Shown here: one piece after another, positions 3,715 through 11,969 of the stretch
Numbering within the stretch: position 1 is the stretch's first letter
How the letters are laid out: the number at the start of each line of letters is the position of its first letter
Origin: Fundidesulfovibrio putealis DSM 16056
GTDB taxonomy: Bacteria > Desulfobacterota > Desulfovibrionia > Desulfovibrionales > Desulfovibrionaceae
DNA: 64,000 nucleotides
Direction of reading: 5' to 3'
Assembly (NCBI RefSeq): GCF_000429325.1
Contig: NZ_AUBQ01000004.1
Coordinates: 186,001 to 250,000 of the forward strand
Notes under the pieces: generated by a model
Told to the model about the DNA's origin: nothing
Seen by the model: only the letters and a program-made list of their open reading frames with translations
The model's database searches: none
Made by a program: the position numbers and the translations under genes

Positions 3715-4170
3715 GTGTTCTGGGTGCGCATCGACAACCGGCTGGTGCACGGCCAGATCATCGAATCCTGGCTCCCTTTCACAGACGCGCGCAACATCGT
3801 GGTGGCCAACGACGAGTTGGCCGCAGACGAACTGCGACAGCAGATCATGTCCATCGCCATACCGCTGGGGGTGGACATCACCTTCGTGAAGGTCGCCCTG
3901 GTCCAGGAGCATCTTGCCGGGAAGAAACTCCTGGGCAAAGACGTGCTGGTTCTCTTCGCGTCCTGTCCGGATGCGCGTCGGGCTTTCGAATCCGGCCTTG
4001 GTTTCTCCCGCCTGAACCTGGGAAACCTGCATTACGGGCCGGGCAAGAAACAGCTCTGCCAGCACATCTCCTTGAGCAAGGAAGATGAATCCTGCCTTGA
4101 TTTCCTGCGCGGCATGGGAGTGGGCATGGATTACCGGTGCATACCGAGCGACCCGGTGGAACTGAATTAA
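3715..4170 (+). CDS. PTS mannose-family EIIB component
   Basis: Receives phosphate from EIIA and passes it to the sugar on the membrane partner EIIC/EIID. The 151-residue product starts with GTG and carries the EIIB-Man active-site motif RIDNRLVHGQ with His12 as predicted phosphorylation site. The start is fixed by the family N-terminus and by the 4-base spacing from the EIIA stop. A 163-base gap with a terminator-like hairpin separates it from EIIC. Confidence 0.92.
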   Translation: MFWVRIDNRLVHGQIIESWLPFTDARNIVVANDELAADELRQQIMSIAIPLGVDITFVKVALVQEHLAGKKLLGKDVLVLFASCPDARRAFESGLGFSRLNLGNLHYGPGKKQLCQHISLSKEDESCLDFLRGMGVGMDYRCIPSDPVELN

Positions 4171-4257
4171 CTGCACTGGCCGACTGCCTAGCCGTCAGGA
4201 GCATACGCCGTGCTGCGGATGCGCGGCTGGGATGAGTCGTCCGAAGCGCATTGCCGC

Positions 4258-4284
4258 AAGAGGAAAGAGAGGCTTTCCTTTTTT
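4258..4284 (+). terminator. terminator-like hairpin between EIIB and EIIC
   Basis: A 6-bp perfect stem GGAAAG/CTTTCC (4262-4267 with 4273-4278, loop AGAGG), extendable by A-T/G-T pairs, is followed by six T residues. The stem is short, so partial termination is more likely than complete. It lies before the proposed EIIC start and would lower EIIC expression relative to EIIA/EIIB. Confidence 0.5.
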
Positions 4285-4333
4285 CGGCTCCTGGTGCATT
4301 CTGCCCGCAAGACAACTTCTCTGGACGCCGCCA

Positions 4334-5028
4334 ATGCAGCTTCACGCAGATACCATCTCCTTCATCCTGGCCAGCAGTTTTTTTTTGCGCTCTTTTCCAG
4401 TTTCCGTTTCCTGATCAACCTGCCGCTGCTTGACCGTCCGCTGACCCTGGCCTTCTTCTGGGGGCTCATTACCGGGGACTGGACGCAGAGCCTTGGCGTC
4501 GGCATCTTTTTCGAGCTCCTCTGGCTGGACATCTTCCCCGCAGGCACCATCATCCCTCCGAACTCGCTGGCGCCGACGCTTGCAAGCCTGTGCGTCATGC
4601 ACCTTCTGGGAATATCCAGTCCGGCCATGGCCGTGGTCATCTTATTTGCCTCGCTGCCGTTCGGGCGGCTGTTCGCCCGGCTGGAGCGCTACCACCGGCA
4701 GTACGAGAACGATGCCTTCAACAAGCTCATGCTCTGGACCAAGCATCCAGAACGCCAGCGCGGTCCAGTGGCCCTGACACGGTCCTCGATGGCCGTGATG
4801 CTTCCCCTTTCCGGCGTGGCGTTCGCGCTGTCGGTCTCCGCGCTGCTGGCGCTCATGCATGTGCTCCTGCCGAGGGTGTCGCCGTTTCTTGGAGACCTGC
4901 CCCTGACCTGGACGCATCTGTGGGTGGTGGGCAGCATCGGGGCTCTGTTGTCCCTGCGGCACCGCCCGGCTTATGCCGTCCTGCTCGGGGGAGTGGCCCT
5001 GGCCATAGCCAGCCGCCTTATTTCCTGA
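4334..5028 (+). CDS. PTS mannose-family EIIC permease, frame broken at a T9 run
   Basis: Membrane channel subunit of the mannose-type PTS. The family signature, RPLTLAFFWGLITGDW followed by FFELLWLDIFPAGTIIPPN, is read in the frame ending at 5028, and several membrane segments follow. In that frame the region before base 4378 gives an unconvincing basic, polar sequence. A proper hydrophobic N-terminus (MQLHADTISFILASSFF) instead reads in the neighbouring frame from ATG 4334 and runs into nine T residues at 4378-4386, then hits TGA about 26 codons from the start. One extra T, or -1 slippage on the run, would join the two into one EIIC of about 230 residues. Either the gene is expressed by slippage, or it is broken, or the base count is wrong. 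No good ribosome binding site precedes 4334. Confidence 0.7.
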
Positions 5029-6676: not shown

Positions 6677-6888
6677 GGCTTATCCTCGTACGCGCCAATC
6701 CTTGAGAGGATCGCCGGTGGTCGCCGTCTTCCGGCCCGGCACGGGATAAGGTGTCGGTGGAATGGGAATGCGGGCAGGTTTAGCTCCCCTTGCGGGGCGG
6801 CGACGCCTTGGTGAACTGCCGACCGGTTTCCTCCTTACGGCAACCCGAAATGAGCCGCAAGCTTAAAAACTGGGTGCGCTATCGCCAT

Positions 6889-6939: not shown

Positions 6940-7818
6940 TTACATGATGCCGGATTTCTTGAGCACCTCGGCGAGCCGGGCGTCGTTCTCTGGGCACATG
7001 TTCACCAGCGGCAGGCGCAGTTCAGGCTTCATGCGTCCCATCATCCCAAGGGCGGTCTTGGCCGGGATGGGGTTGGTCTCCATGAACATGGCCCGGCTGA
7101 TCGGAGCCAGCTTGTAATGAAGCCGCTGGGCCTTCTTGATGTCGCCCTTGCGCCAGGCCTTGCACAGCTTGCGCATCAAGGCCGGGGCAACGTTGGACAC
7201 CACGGAGATGACGCCGTGTCCGCCGATGGCCAGGGTGGGCAGCACAGTGAAGTCGTCTCCTGAAAGCACGGTGAAGTCCTTGCCGCAGAATTCGATCACC
7301 TCGGATATCTGGGTCAGGTTGCCGGTGGCTTCCTTGATGCCCACCACGTCGGCCACTTGCTTCTTCAGGGCGGCAACGGTCTGGGGGAGCAGGTTGACGG
7401 AGGTGCGCCCGGGCACGTTGTAGACGATGAAGGGCATGGACACACCGTCGGCGATGGCCTTGAAGTGCGCGATCAGGCCAGCCTGGGTGGGTTTGTTGTA
7501 GTAGGGCGTGATGAGCAGCGCGCCGTCGGCTTTGGCGTCCTTGGCGTGGCGGGCGAGTTCCACGGCTTCGGTGGTGTTGTTGGAACCTGCTCCGGCCAGG
7601 ACGGGAATGCGCCCTTTCACCTGGTCAACGCAGATTTTTATCACCTGGACATGTTCGGCGTGGGAAAGGGTGGCGGATTCTCCCGTGGTTCCACAGGGAA
7701 CAAGGCCGTCGATGCCTTGTTCGATCTGCCACTCGATGTGCGCGCGATATGCCTCCTCGTCAACCGCCCCGTTCTTGAACGGGGTGACGAGAGCCGTGAA
7801 CGCTCCAGTAAACTGCAT
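6940..7818 (-). CDS. dapA: 4-hydroxy-tetrahydrodipicolinate synthase
   Basis: Condenses pyruvate with aspartate semialdehyde, the first committed step of lysine and diaminopimelate synthesis. The 292-residue (beta/alpha)8 barrel protein carries the GTTGES motif (residues 43-48), the catalytic Tyr133 (IVYNVPGRTS) and the Schiff-base Lys162 (GIKEATGNL). GGAGG precedes the ATG. It follows the UshA-like gene by 50 bases and is closed by a terminator. The lysC gene for the preceding step lies 22 kb away. Confidence 0.97.
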   Translation of the reverse strand: MQFTGAFTALVTPFKNGAVDEEAYRAHIEWQIEQGIDGLVPCGTTGESATLSHAEHVQVIKICVDQVKGRIPVLAGAGSNNTTEAVELARHAKDAKADGALLITPYYNKPTQAGLIAHFKAIADGVSMPFIVYNVPGRTSVNLLPQTVAALKKQVADVVGIKEATGNLTQISEVIEFCGKDFTVLSGDDFTVLPTLAIGGHGVISVVSNVAPALMRKLCKAWRKGDIKKAQRLHYKLAPISRAMFMETNPIPAKTALGMMGRMKPELRLPLVNMCPENDARLAEVLKKSGIM

Positions 7819-7868: not shown

Positions 7869-8774
7869 CTATTTCGCCTGCTTGTCGCCCGGATCGGGAA
7901 CGTTCTGGAGCATCTGCTCCAGAGCGGGTGTGGGGGTGAAGGTGTCGTCCAACACCACCGCCTGGGTGGTGAAGTTGACTTCCTTCTCCCACTTGAACGA
8001 TTTTTCGTTGGGCCAGGCGAGCAGGTCAATGGTGTAGATCGCCTTGCCCTTTGTGTACGTGTGCATCCACAGCACGCGTCCGTTGCCCTGGTCCGCCTTG
8101 GCCGAGAATCCGACGCCCGTACCCGAGCCGAGCAGCACATCGAGATCCGGCTTCTGCTTCTCGATGAAGTCGGATTCGGTCTGCACGCCCCAGGGGCTCA
8201 CGCCCACCAGGAGCTTCACCTGCGGGCGCAGCTCCTTGAGCTTGCGCGAGACGGCCTGAAGCTGTTCAGGTGTGGGGTCACCACCGGGCTTTTTGGTCTC
8301 CGGGAAGTATACCACGCCAACTTTGCCTTTGGCCGTATCCAGGATGACGCCTTTGGGCTCCTTGGGGTCCAGAACCTGCCACCCCGTCGGCGGCGCAATC
8401 CCCAGGGAGGAGAACTGGGCCGCCTCCGCCGGAGAGACTGCTCCGGTGCTGTAGTTCAATGCCTCGTATGCCTTGACCAGGGGCGCGTAGGCCTCCGGCA
8501 GGGCATGCTCGACTCCGTCGTCGGAGATGAACTCATAGGGACCGGCGATGAACGCGGTCAGTCCCTTGACGCTCTCCTGGGAGCGAATCTTCTCGAAAGC
8601 GCCGGCCCGCCGGGCCAGCCCGCCTATGGTGCGGTTTCCTCAGGTGGGGCAGGGTTTGAGGTAGCCCCAGGAGTTGCCGCTGAATACTATGGACAGAACC
8701 GGCTCCGCCTTGGCCTGTTCCGCCAGGAATACAACGGCGAAAACGGCCAGGAGAAGCTTGAAGACAAAGCGCAT
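7869..8774 (-). CDS. UshA-like selenoprotein candidate (TGA at codon 45)
   Basis: Exported protein related to the UshA/5'-nucleotidase metallophosphatases. The reading frame from ATG 8774 encodes a clear signal peptide (residues 1-23, cleavage after AKA), then SGNSWGYLKPCPT, then an in-frame TGA at 8640-8642, then GNRTIGGLARRAGAF and 250 more residues without interruption to 7869. Homologues as I know them carry CPxCG here, so the TGA stands where the second cysteine of a C-x-x-C motif would be, giving C42-P-T-U45. A stable hairpin begins 15 bases after the TGA, in the window expected for a bacterial SECIS. The full product would be 301 residues. The usual metallophosphatase motifs (D-x-H, GNHD) are not visible, so a redox or binding role is more likely than phosphatase activity. 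A conventional gene caller would report two fragments or only a 196-residue protein. HU lies 10 bases upstream, so the two are probably co-transcribed. A true nonsense mutation is the alternative. Confidence 0.85.
8609..8624 (-). promoter_or_regulatory. SECIS-like hairpin downstream of the TGA
   Basis: On the minus strand, 15 bases after TGA (8640-8642), the sequence GGCGGG-CUGG-CCCGCC forms a perfect 6-bp stem with a 4-base loop containing G residues. Bacterial SECIS elements are small stem-loops within the coding region whose apical loop lies roughly 16-37 bases after the UGA; here the loop begins about 21 bases after it. A competing GGCCC/GGGCC stem overlaps. The bulged U of the E. coli element is not obvious. 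Confidence 0.55.
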
Positions 8775-8784
8775 GTAACAAAAC

Positions 8785-9060
8785 CTACTTGTTAAGATAT
8801 TCCTTGAGTTCCTTGCCGGGCCTGAAGAAGGGCAGGCGCTTGGGTGCGACGTCGACCACATCCCCGGATTTGGGGTTGCGCCCGGTGTAGCCCTTGTAGC
8901 CTTTCACCTTGAAGCTGCCAAATCCCCGTATCTCGACGCGGTCGCCATCAACAAGTGCCTGCTTGATGGAGTCGATGAAGGAATTGACCACGGCAGAGGC
9001 TTCGTCCACATGGATTTCACGGCTTTCGGCCAGAGCGTTGATGAGTTCGCTTTTATTCAT
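8785..9060 (-). CDS. HU/IHF family DNA-binding protein
   Basis: Small basic histone-like protein that bends and compacts DNA as a dimer. The 91-residue product has the typical N-terminal helices, the family signature GFGSFKVKGYKGYTGRNPKSG and the DNA-intercalating arm with RNPKSG proline around residue 62. Whether it acts as HU or as an IHF-type subunit cannot be told from the sequence. GGAGG stands before the ATG, and a sigma-70-like promoter lies at 9137-9165. The UshA-like gene follows after 10 bases. Confidence 0.95.
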   Translation of the reverse strand: MNKSELINALAESREIHVDEASAVVNSFIDSIKQALVDGDRVEIRGFGSFKVKGYKGYTGRNPKSGDVVDVAPKRLPFFRPGKELKEYLNK

Positions 9061-9994: not shown

Positions 9995-10863
9995 ATATCC
10001 GGCCCTGTGAACAGGAATTGTTTTTCCTGGGCATGAACCAGGGTTGCCTGGGGCGTCTCCAGGAGGTCGGGGATCGGCGCCTTGACGATGCGGTCCTTGC
10101 CCTGGGCTTTGGCCTCATAGAGCGCCTTGTCGGCCATGTCCATGAAGCGGTCCACGCTCAGCACCACCTTGCCCTTGGTGCACACCAGCCCGACGGAGCA
10201 GGTTGCGCTGATCGGGGTTGAGACACCCTCGCACATCACCTTGCGCGTCTTGGCCTCAGCCAGCACCCGCGAAAGCGTGGTCTCGGCCTGCACGAGGCCC
10301 GAGCCGGGCAGGATGAGGGCGAACTCCTCGCCTCCGATGCGCGCGGCGAGGTCGTATCCGCGCTTGTGGCTGAGCAGGGTCCCGGCGGTGGCCGCCAGCA
10401 CCCGGTCGCCGCAGAGGTGGCCGTACGTGTCGTTGACGGCCTTGAAGTCGTCCAGGTCGATGATGGCCAGGGACAGGCTGGAGCCGCTGCGGTAGGCGCG
10501 TTCCAATTCCATCTTCAGGTTCTTTTCGAAGGCGCGTCGGTTGGCGAGTCCGGTCAGGGGGTCGTGGCGGGTCTGGTGGGCCAGTTCCTCCAGGGTGTGC
10601 TGGATGCGCGCCAGATGCGGCGTGGGGTCGCCTGTGGCAGGCAGCGCCAGCCAGTGCATGAACTGGCCGTCCTTGGTCATCTCGGCCCATTCGTCCAGGG
10701 TCAGCCCGGAACACAGGCGCATGAGGATCAGGCCGTCCCGGCACTCTGGGCCCATGGACGCGCGGTTCACCTTGGCCAAGGCTTCCCGCAGCCTGGAGAT
10801 CTCTTCCAGTATTACGAGCCGTTCCTCGGCGAGAGTGCTTGGGGAGTCGTTATTTTCCGGCAT
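9991..10863 (-). CDS. diguanylate cyclase (GGDEF domain)
   Basis: Makes cyclic di-GMP from two GTP. Residues 1-100 form a mainly helical N-terminal part of no family I recognise, without signal peptide or membrane segment; residues 100-265 are a GGDEF domain with the active-site motif GGEEF at 177-181. The inhibitory site RGYD lies at 168-171, exactly five residues before it, so product feedback inhibition is expected. It overlaps prfB by 14 bases and the FlhG-like gene by 4 bases, placing c-di-GMP synthesis directly beside a flagellar-placement ATPase. Confidence 0.94.
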   Translation of the reverse strand: MPENNDSPSTLAEERLVILEEISRLREALAKVNRASMGPECRDGLILMRLCSGLTLDEWAEMTKDGQFMHWLALPATGDPTPHLARIQHTLEELAHQTRHDPLTGLANRRAFEKNLKMELERAYRSGSSLSLAIIDLDDFKAVNDTYGHLCGDRVLAATAGTLLSHKRGYDLAARIGGEEFALILPGSGLVQAETTLSRVLAEAKTRKVMCEGVSTPISATCSVGLVCTKGKVVLSVDRFMDMADKALYEAKAQGKDRIVKAPIPDLLETPQATLVHAQEKQFLFTGPDI

Positions 10864-11969
10864 GGAAGTGCAGGAGGTAATCGCGGATGAAGGTGTCGAT
10901 GTCGCCGTCGAGGACGGCTTCCACGTTGCCCGCCTCGCTGCCGGTGCGGTGGTCCTTGACCAGACGGTAGGGCTGAAGCGTGTAGGTTCGAATCTGGCTG
11001 CCGAAGCCGATGGCGTCCTTGGATTCGTACTCGGCCTGGCGCACGGCCTGCTGCTTCTTGAGCTCCAGATCGTAGAGCCTGGCTTTCAGCACCTTCATGG
11101 CGGATTCGCGGTTTCGGTGCTGGCTCTTTTCGTTCTGGCACTGCACCACGATGCCAGAGGGCATGTGGGTGATGCGGATGGCGGAGCTGGTCTTGTTGAC
11201 GTGCTGTCCGCCTGGGCCGCTGGCCCGGAAGACGTCCACGCGGATGTCCTCCTCCTTCACGTCGATCTGGATGTCCGCCCCGGCGTCCGGGTAGACGTCC
11301 ACGGAGGCGAAGGAGGTGTGCCTGCGCCCGGAGGAGTCGAAAGGGGATATGCGGATCAGGCGGTGGATGCCTTTCTCGGCCTTGAGAAAGCCGTAGGCGT
11401 AAGGGCCGTTGATCTGGAGGGTCACGGACTTCACGCCCGCCTCGTCGCCGTCCAGGAAGTCCAGGATGTCCACGCCGAACTGATGGCGTTCGCACCAGCG
11501 GCGATAGAGCCGAAGCAGCATTTCGGCCCAGTCCTGGGCTTCGGTGCCGCCTGCTCCGGGGTGGATTTCCAGAATGGCTCCGGAAGCGTCTTCCGCACCG
11601 GAGAGCAGGGTGGCCAGTTCTGCGGCCTCGACCTGCTTGGAGAGCGAGTCGAGCTGGTCTGCCAGGGCCTGGAGCACTTCCTGGGAGGACGAATCCTCCT
11701 GGGCCATGACCAGCCACTCGTCCAGGTCCTCGCGGGATTTCTGCAGGGCTTCGTAGTTGGCGACCTTGCCGGAGAGGTCGGCCTTTTCGCGCAGAAAAGG
11801 CGTGAGCCGTTCCGGGTTCTGCCAGGAGTCGGGCTTGGAGAGTTCTGCCTCTATGGCTTCCAGGCGCGCGCGTTTGCCTTCCAGGTCAAAGTCGCCCCCA
11901 GAGGGAATCGAACTGGTCCTGGAGGTCTTTGGCCTGTGTTTTCAAGTCGGGATACTGCAAGAGTGCCAT
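10850..11969 (-). CDS. prfB: peptide chain release factor 2 with programmed +1 frameshift
   Basis: Recognises UAA and UGA and releases the finished peptide. The first 27 codons run from ATG 11969 to CTT at 11891-11889 and are followed by in-frame TGA (11888-11886). A +1 shift at CTTTGAC continues the protein for 345 more codons, giving 372 residues, the usual RF2 length. A G-rich Shine-Dalgarno-like GGGGG lies just before the shift site, as in the classic autoregulatory element. The peptide anticodon SPF is at about 208-210 and the catalytic GGQ at about 253-255. Only the 285-residue part from an internal ATG would be called without the frameshift. Confidence 0.97.
11886..11891 (-). promoter_or_regulatory. 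RF2 programmed frameshift site CTTTGA
   Basis: The minus strand reads CTCTGGGGGCGACTTTGAC. When RF2 is scarce the ribosome pauses at TGA and slips +1 from CTT to TTT, completing RF2; a GGGGG anti-Shine-Dalgarno contact upstream promotes this. This is a well known autoregulatory device. Confidence 0.95.

What the first reader, a model, noticed from the sequence alone, without database searches (positions are those of the whole stretch)
8640..8642. In-frame TGA in a UshA-like gene is probably selenocysteine
The protein reads signal peptide, GYLKPCPT, TGA, GNRTIGGLARR and 250 further residues in the same frame. The TGA stands exactly where homologues as I know them have the second Cys of CPxCG. 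Coding character and family similarity continue on both sides, so the gene is not decayed. Sulfate reducers use selenoproteins elsewhere, and a yedF gene lies in the same window. An automatic caller would give a short false start at 8459. No function is established for this UshA-like group, so the reactive residue is a clue to chemistry: a C-x-x-U redox site on an exported protein.
Basis: partly seen in the sequence, partly recalled or inferred. Interest (0 to 1): 0.85.

Follow-up and report, generated by a model that had tools for sequence, protein, structure and literature searches.

The report
Selenocysteine in a UshA-like exported protein
A stop codon inside this gene of a bacterium from a family of sulfate reducers is very probably read as the rare amino acid selenocysteine; the protein belongs to an already named selenoprotein family whose job is unknown, and its relatives suggest a phosphatase-shaped protein that lost its metals and became a redox protein.

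Summary
Window 7869-8774 (-) reads through one TGA (8640-8642) as a 301-residue, apparently exported protein with C42-P-T-U45. It scores 289.6 bits (cut-off 140) against NCBIfam NF049981, "UshA-like (seleno)protein family 2", listed as CxxU in a 2026 review: a known family. Evidence for selenocysteine: 67 distinct proteins read have TGA (48) or Cys (19) at this column, nothing else; the genome has selA, selB, selC and selD; a co-varying SECIS-type hairpin follows the TGA (28-nt spacing, GGC loop) and is broken in 17 of 19 Cys relatives; SelB is over cut-off in 23 of 23 Sec genomes tested and 4 of 12 TGA-free ones. New here is a lead on function. The model has the 5'-nucleotidase fold, yet all eight metal-ligand positions are changed in this protein. 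Other UshA-like selenoproteins keep 0-4 ligands, and 14 of 25 read carry four haem motifs. A second Sec copy in this genome sits beside ccmF. I infer a metal-free exported selenothiol oxidoreductase tied to cytochrome c; substrate unknown.

The parts
7869..8774 (-). Gene of UshA-like selenoprotein family 2: ATG at 8774, Sec codon TGA 8640-8642, stop TAG 7869-7871; 301 residues
   Evidence: translation; NF049981 289.6 bits vs cut-off 140
8640..8642 (-). In-frame TGA, selenocysteine 45 of the CPTU (CxxU) motif
   Evidence: 48 TGA and 19 Cys codons at this column in 67 distinct proteins
8601..8619 (-). Putative bacterial SECIS hairpin in the coding region: 8-bp stem, GGC apical loop (8609-8611), 28 nt after the TGA
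   Evidence: -14.8 kcal/mol hairpin within published bSECIS limits; covariation; 17 of 19 Cys relatives keep only 3-5 of the 8 pairs
8706..8774 (-). Likely N-terminal signal peptide (about residues 1-23)
   Evidence: hydrophobic N-terminus by eye; predicted helix 2-18; no signal-peptide program was run and the boundary is my reading
8785..9060 (-). HU-family DNA-binding protein gene, 10 nt upstream, same strand; conserved neighbour
   Evidence: PF00216; found in 58 of 64 loci
6940..7818 (-). dapA-like gene, 50 nt downstream, same strand; conserved neighbour
   Evidence: found in 44 of 64 loci, many with short flanks; the name is my reading of the sequence, no family scan was run on it

Best explanation
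Well supported by comparison, not by experiment: the gene is an intact member of NCBIfam NF049981, and UGA 8640-8642 is decoded as selenocysteine with the help of a SECIS hairpin 28 nt downstream. Inferred: the exported protein keeps the UshA/5'-nucleotidase metallophosphatase fold but has lost the two-metal site. The loop after the first strand, which in true 5'-nucleotidases follows the first Asp/His metal ligands, carries Cys42-Pro-Thr-Sec45 instead. It most likely cycles between selenol/thiol and selenenylsulfide as a periplasmic oxidoreductase that exchanges electrons with thiols or c-type cytochromes; a role in cytochrome c or thiol handling is my first guess. My odds: about 0.97 that Sec is inserted, about 0.7 that it is a metal-free redox protein, below 0.3 for any one substrate. 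The confidence given here is for the Sec-protein statement with a redox role left open.
For: Sec: 48 TGA, 19 Cys, 0 other at the column in 67 proteins; selC at C2:394252 (83.9 bits; ARAGORN tRNA-SeC, anticodon tca), a SelB C-terminal domain (72.7 bits), selA (588.3), selD (335.1, itself with an in-frame TGA); hairpin covariation score 0.274 against a shuffled mean of 0.170 (0 of 500 as high) and at most 0.081 when slid; strict hairpin rule met in 43 of 48 TGA genes, 42 of them with the loop at 28 nt; SelB over cut-off in 23 of 23 TGA genomes and 4 of 12 TGA-free genomes tested. Function: model pLDDT 92.2, pTM 0.90; best PDB matches are 5'-nucleotidases (E 1.3e-13, TM 0.61 by query length, 0.39 by target length); all eight metal-ligand positions changed in this protein, and none of eight kept in 58 of 67 family-2 proteins; 14 of 25 distinct other relatives read have four CXXCH motifs, with PF13435 Cytochrome_C554 in the one that was scanned; a Sec paralog lies next to CcmF, a TPR gene and a P-type ATPase in 3 of 3 genomes read for it.
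Against: No experiment. Five of 48 TGA genes miss the strict contiguous-stem rule, and 9 of 19 Cys genes have some hairpin that passes the generic rule, so that rule alone is weak in this GC-rich DNA. Two Cys genes keep 7 of 8 pairs of the hairpin (L061 at 28 nt, L057 at 25 nt). Plain folding of 48 nt separates the two sets only weakly, and the mean energy is lower in the Cys set. The window gene sits beside hup and dapA, not beside cytochrome genes, so the redox link rests on relatives. The TPR gene by the paralog matches CcmH only under its cut-off (21.9 vs 42 bits). The metal-ligand comparison is by sequence alignment, and the GNHE region is uncertain. L062 has Glu for the first Cys, so the CxxU pair is not kept everywhere.
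Confidence: 0.9

Rival explanations
1. The TGA is an ordinary nonsense mutation and the gene is a pseudogene, or the real product is the 44-residue peptide or the 196-residue ORF from 8459.
For: A mechanical reading gives the ORF 7869-8459 with a TTG start.
Against: The same codon is TGA in 48 of 67 distinct proteins; between the window and its close relative L043 third positions differ far more than first and second ones after the TGA (0.207 vs 0.043 and 0.020); a co-varying hairpin and the Sec machinery are present.
Confidence: 0.02
2. The UGA is read as another residue (Cys or Trp) by a suppressor or near-cognate tRNA rather than as Sec.
For: Cys is the alternative residue at the column.
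Against: A tRNA-Sec with anticodon tca is present; the hairpin goes with the UGA form; the 23 TGA genomes tested all have SelB over cut-off, against 4 of 12 TGA-free ones.
Confidence: 0.02
3. The protein is a soft-metal- or selenium-binding periplasmic protein (CxxU as a ligand pair), not a redox enzyme.
For: The Sec paralog lies by a P-type ATPase, and in this genome also by a MerR regulator and a Metal_resist gene.
Against: Relatives are fused to tetrahaem cytochromes; many CxxU/UxxC families in the review's list are named as redox proteins (passages); the conserved neighbours of the window gene are hup, a ParA-like ATPase and dapA, not metal genes.
Confidence: 0.2
4. It is still a metallophosphoesterase (nucleotidase), with Sec having a side role.
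For: Fold match to 5'-nucleotidases; other UshA-like selenoproteins keep up to 4 of 8 ligands.
Against: All eight ligand positions are changed in the window protein. In family 2 the GD aspartate is kept in 2 of 67 and the two GGHxH histidines in 0 of 67; the N and H of GNHE are kept in 0 of 92 selenoprotein-family rows compared.
Confidence: 0.05

Closest known systems
NCBIfam NF049981 UshA-like (seleno)protein family 2
   Same: Full-length match, 289.6 bits, profile positions 1-262 of 262; CxxU motif
   Different: No difference found; this is a member
NCBIfam NF041198 UshA-like (seleno)protein (PCGU)
   Same: Related N-terminal UshA-like domain with Sec in the same loop
   Different: PCGU (CxU) instead of CPxU; the best-scoring members read mostly carry a C-terminal tetrahaem domain; the window protein scores 39 bits against a cut-off of 275
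UshA / CD73 5'-nucleotidases (PDB 3ivd, 2ush, 4h1s) and SoxB (2wdc)
   Same: Fold of the catalytic domain for the 5'-nucleotidases; weak profile matches to venom and Thermus 5'-nucleotidases and to SoxB
   Different: Metal ligands changed and a Cys/Sec loop added; at 301 residues the protein is much shorter than these roughly 500-residue structures
Bacterial SECIS element model (PMC13188914, Fig. 2 legend, passage read)
   Same: Loop of 3 nt, G in the first two loop positions, 8-bp stem, 28 nt from UGA, -14.8 kcal/mol
   Different: Nothing outside the model in the window gene

Membership tests
NF049981 UshA-like (seleno)protein family 2 | Whole-protein score over the curated cut-off of 140 bits | tested here: met
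   289.6 bits, E 2.2e-86
NF049981 UshA-like (seleno)protein family 2 | CxxU (or CxxC) motif | tested here: met
   C42-P-T-U45; the motif is listed in PMC13188914 (passage)
Selenoprotein (bacterial, SelB/SECIS dependent) | selA, selB, selC, selD in the genome | tested here: met
   selB by its C-terminal domain model (PF09107)
Selenoprotein (bacterial, SelB/SECIS dependent) | SECIS hairpin within published limits downstream of UGA | tested here: met
   the generic limits alone are also met somewhere in 9 of 19 Cys genes
Selenoprotein (bacterial, SelB/SECIS dependent) | Homologues with Cys at the UGA column | tested here: met
   19 of 67 distinct proteins
Selenoprotein (bacterial, SelB/SECIS dependent) | Selenium in the protein | not testable with these tools
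   needs 75Se labelling or mass spectrometry
NF041198 UshA-like (seleno)protein (PCGU) | Score over the curated cut-off of 275 bits | tested here: not met
   39 bits
UshA-type 5'-nucleotidase / metallophosphatase | Metallophosphatase fold | tested here: met
   Foldseek E 1.3e-13, TM about 0.6 by query length, on a predicted model
UshA-type 5'-nucleotidase / metallophosphatase | Dinuclear metal ligands (D, H, D, N, H, H, H, H; recalled and located on the L091 sequence) | tested here: not met
   N, W, Y, P, A, P, G, G in the window protein (sequence alignment, GNHE region uncertain)

The most novel reading that the evidence does not exclude
UshA-like selenoproteins of this phylum are a line of metallophosphatase-fold proteins that swapped a two-metal phosphoesterase site for a selenocysteine redox loop. 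Partly degenerate intermediates still exist, cytochrome c is the electron partner, and the stand-alone family-2 protein is a metal-free periplasmic selenothiol oxidoreductase acting in cytochrome c or thiol handling.
Probability: 0.4. Interest if true: 0.65.

Novelty: new member of a known kind. Interest (0 to 1): 0.4.

Why it matters
The Sec call itself adds one more member to a named family and corrects a gene that a mechanical reading would truncate. The wider value is a testable route to function: the 2008 GOS paper set UshA-like apart from families with conserved Cys-based redox motifs (passage), and the passages I read in the two reviews give it no function. Haem fusions, a ccmF neighbour and the changed metal site point to redox chemistry on a phosphatase scaffold.

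Tried and rejected
Pfam gave no family over its cut-off for the protein, and at E 0.01 none for 62 of the 63 aligned members; the one Glyco_trans_4_4 match looks like chance. Rfam at gathering thresholds found no SECIS family in the window, so the hairpin was tested directly. Plain folding of 48 nt against mononucleotide shuffles separated TGA and Cys genes only weakly (mean z -0.96 vs -0.39, p 0.011; mean energy -18.5 vs -19.7, lower in the Cys genes); the position-fixed tests carry the argument. A first protein set (68 proteins, 49 U and 19 C) had wrong C-termini on the - strand from an off-by-one error of mine; it was redone (67 proteins), and only that is used. In one search L063 (a partial match) was dropped, L014 and L027 kept a stop in a wrong tail, and L039 had a wrong tail; these three and L030 were left out of alignment A1 (63 of 67 sent), and tails were cut at 330-340 residues. 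My script merged neighbouring hits, so the TGA copy of the G121 tandem pair was not read. In one search my motif search found nothing in 11 of the 40 loci L100-L139 (L100, L101, L105, L107, L115, L121, L132, L134, L135, L138, L139), one spurious hit (L136) was dropped, and three loci repeated others, so counts on non-family-2 relatives cover 25 distinct proteins, taken from the best-scoring matches; this favours full-length, haem-bearing forms. The idea that the nearby prfB-like gene (which serves UGA termination; name and role recalled) takes part in decoding was dropped: it is part of a conserved gene order.

Full report
Observation. On the - strand, from 8774 to 7869, an ATG-initiated frame is interrupted once, by TGA at 8640-8642, and ends at TAG. 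Read through, it gives 301 residues with a hydrophobic N-terminus and C42-P-T-U45. A mechanical reading gives a 196-residue ORF from a TTG at 8459.

Family. NCBIfam gives NF049981 "UshA-like (seleno)protein family 2", 289.6 bits against a cut-off of 140, over all 262 profile positions; NF041198 "UshA-like (seleno)protein" gives 39 bits against 275. A 2026 review (PMC13188914, passages read) lists family 2 as a CxxU selenoprotein known from GenBank annotation. Its older relative is listed as CxU there, in PMC9312934 (passages) and in PMC2398784 (passages). The kind is therefore known. Searches of the paper library for UshA-like with selenoprotein, UshA with selenoprotein and cytochrome, and UshA-like with selenocysteine (listings only, apart from those three papers) showed no title about the function of these proteins.

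Organism. The nearest named loci are a Desulfovibrionaceae MAG (94% identical) and Fundidesulfovibrio agrisoli (61%), so the genome is very probably of Desulfovibrionaceae (for the lineage).

Facing residue. Among 149 genomes of the family, 101 have a match. By my hand count of that listing, 91 of 116 single rows over the cut-off contain exactly one TGA and 25 contain no stop (one of these is a fragment that lacks the N-terminus). I read 67 distinct proteins: from the 30 loci returned, from 40 stretches that I chose, and from a few others; together they hold 19 of the 24 full-length TGA-free rows. The facing codon is TGA in 48 and Cys in 19, nothing else. Because I chose TGA-free rows on purpose, 48:19 is not a population ratio.

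Machinery. The genome has tRNA-Sec (83.9 bits; ARAGORN tRNA-SeC, anticodon tca), a SelB C-terminal domain over cut-off, selA, and selD with its own in-frame TGA. In 35 genomes that I picked from the family and tested with the selB model, a hit over cut-off is present in 23 of 23 with a TGA copy and in 4 of 12 with only TGA-free copies. Of the 8 TGA-free genomes without it, six are listed as 92-97% complete and two as 86 and 74%. One of the 12 (G060) was not read by me and is called TGA-free from the listing.

SECIS. In the 48 TGA genes a stem at columns 24-31 with 35-42 (counted from the T of TGA) forms in 89.9% of cells. The covariation score is 0.274 against 0.170 in shuffles (0 of 500 as high) and at most 0.081 when the partner is slid; the count of pairs with a change on both sides is less telling (4, reached by 26 of 500 shuffles). 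The loop is GGC or GGA in the 42 of 48 that pass the strict rule at this position. The window hairpin (8601-8619) has 28 nt spacing, a 3-nt loop, 8 pairs and -14.8 kcal/mol, inside the published limits. A strict contiguous-stem version of those limits is met by 43 of 48 TGA genes, 42 of them at this position. Of 19 Cys genes, anchored on the GGxxRR motif, 17 keep 3 to 5 of 8 pairs and two keep 7: L061 at 28 nt and L057 at 25 nt from the Cys codon. Nine of 19 Cys genes pass the generic limits somewhere, so the generic rule has a high background in GC-rich DNA. In a tree of the 67 proteins plus six Sec relatives that I chose as outgroup, the Sec/Cys label changes at least 6 times (at least 3 forced by strong branches), so the Cys genes are fewer than 19 independent cases. 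With that rooting the simplest reading is a Sec ancestor with repeated replacement by Cys.

Gene neighbourhood. In the 64 loci compared, hup was found in 58, a ParA/MinD-like ATPase in 57 and dapA in 44; many loci are too short to show all of them. HU and ParA are by Pfam; the names prfB, GGDEF and dapA are my reading. The order prfB, GGDEF, ParA, hup, this gene, dapA is shared by Sec and Cys forms in part or whole; it says the gene is a fixed resident, not what it does. Paralogs are more telling. The second Sec copy of this genome lies 3' of ccmF and a TPR gene (CcmH-like only under cut-off) and 5' of a P-type ATPase, with a MerR gene between on the other strand; relatives of ccmF, the TPR gene and the P-type ATPase lie in the same order around the copy in the two other genomes read. 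Four Cys paralogs (L045-L048) sit among pilin-like genes, by eye; Pfam N_methyl was over cut-off in one of the two such L045 genes scanned and just under it in the other.

Fold and changed metal site. AlphaFold2 on 63 aligned members gives pLDDT 92.2 and pTM 0.90. Foldseek finds 5'-nucleotidases first (E 1.3e-13, TM about 0.6 by query length); sequence profiles see the same weakly. Aligned to a 5'-nucleotidase of the same genome (L091, so named by its motifs), the eight metal-ligand positions read N, W, Y, P, A, P, G, G in the window protein. Of 67 family-2 proteins 58 keep none of the eight, 6 keep one and 3 keep two; of 14 haem-bearing relatives 1 keeps none, 5 one, 2 two, 2 three and 4 four; of 11 without haem 2 keep none, 3 one, 5 two and 1 three. 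No row of these 92 keeps the N or H of GNHE. So even the less changed relatives lack a full site. The Cys/Sec loop directly follows the first strand, where true 5'-nucleotidases have their first ligands. I could not measure distances in the model.

Link to haem. Across the phylum 122 of 297 genomes match NF049981; the four over cut-off are of the window's own family, its own genome included, and most rows in the (cut) listing carry one TGA. Of 25 distinct relatives with a readable motif, drawn from the best matches, all 25 have TGA at it, 14 have four CXXCH motifs behind the UshA-like domain, and 11 have none. The one scanned carries PF13435 Cytochrome_C554. A fused tetrahaem domain is good evidence for electron transfer to or from the Sec domain in those relatives; carrying this over to the stand-alone protein is inference.

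Conclusion. Sec at residue 45 is about as certain as sequence can make it. The protein is a new member of a known family. The best reading of its chemistry is a metal-free, phosphatase-fold, exported selenothiol oxidoreductase with a link to c-type cytochromes; its substrate is open.

Noticed in passing
L044 (G000:C8:92000-101500), 4127-4921 -: A second TGA-containing family-2 paralog in the same genome, beside ccmF, a TPR gene, a MerR regulator, a P-type ATPase and a Metal_resist gene.
   Followed up: partly
L109-L111, L116-L120, L122-L125, L130, L131: 14 distinct relatives are a TGA-containing UshA-like domain followed by four CXXCH motifs; PF13435 found in L116.
   Followed up: partly
L102, L103, L104, L106, L108, L112, L113, L114, L137: TGA-bearing CPxU UshA-like proteins of other families of the phylum score under the NF049981 cut-off or were found with NF041198 under its cut-off; several keep part of the metal ligands and look like intermediates. 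Possibly an unnamed third group.
   Followed up: partly
L045, L046, L047, L048: Cys paralogs of the family lie among pilin-like genes, with an AAA_22/PG_binding protein in L045.
   Followed up: partly
L062 4370-5356 +: A family-2 member whose first Cys of CxxU is Glu while the TGA is kept.
   Followed up: no
L042, L041, L061: One genus (g25) carries a tandem pair, a TGA-free copy followed by a TGA copy; the Cys copy in L061 still has the hairpin in place, as if newly changed from Sec.
   Followed up: partly
window 6772-6825 -: Match to Rfam RF02940 (COG3860 RNA), 74.5 bits against a gathering score of 42.5.
   Followed up: no
window 10850-11707 -: prfB-like gene (named by eye) 2 kb upstream in the same gene run, seen in 26 of 64 loci, many too short to show it.
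   Followed up: no
L084 (G000:C4:15480-16400): selD of this genome has an in-frame TGA, so it is probably a selenoprotein itself.
   Followed up: no
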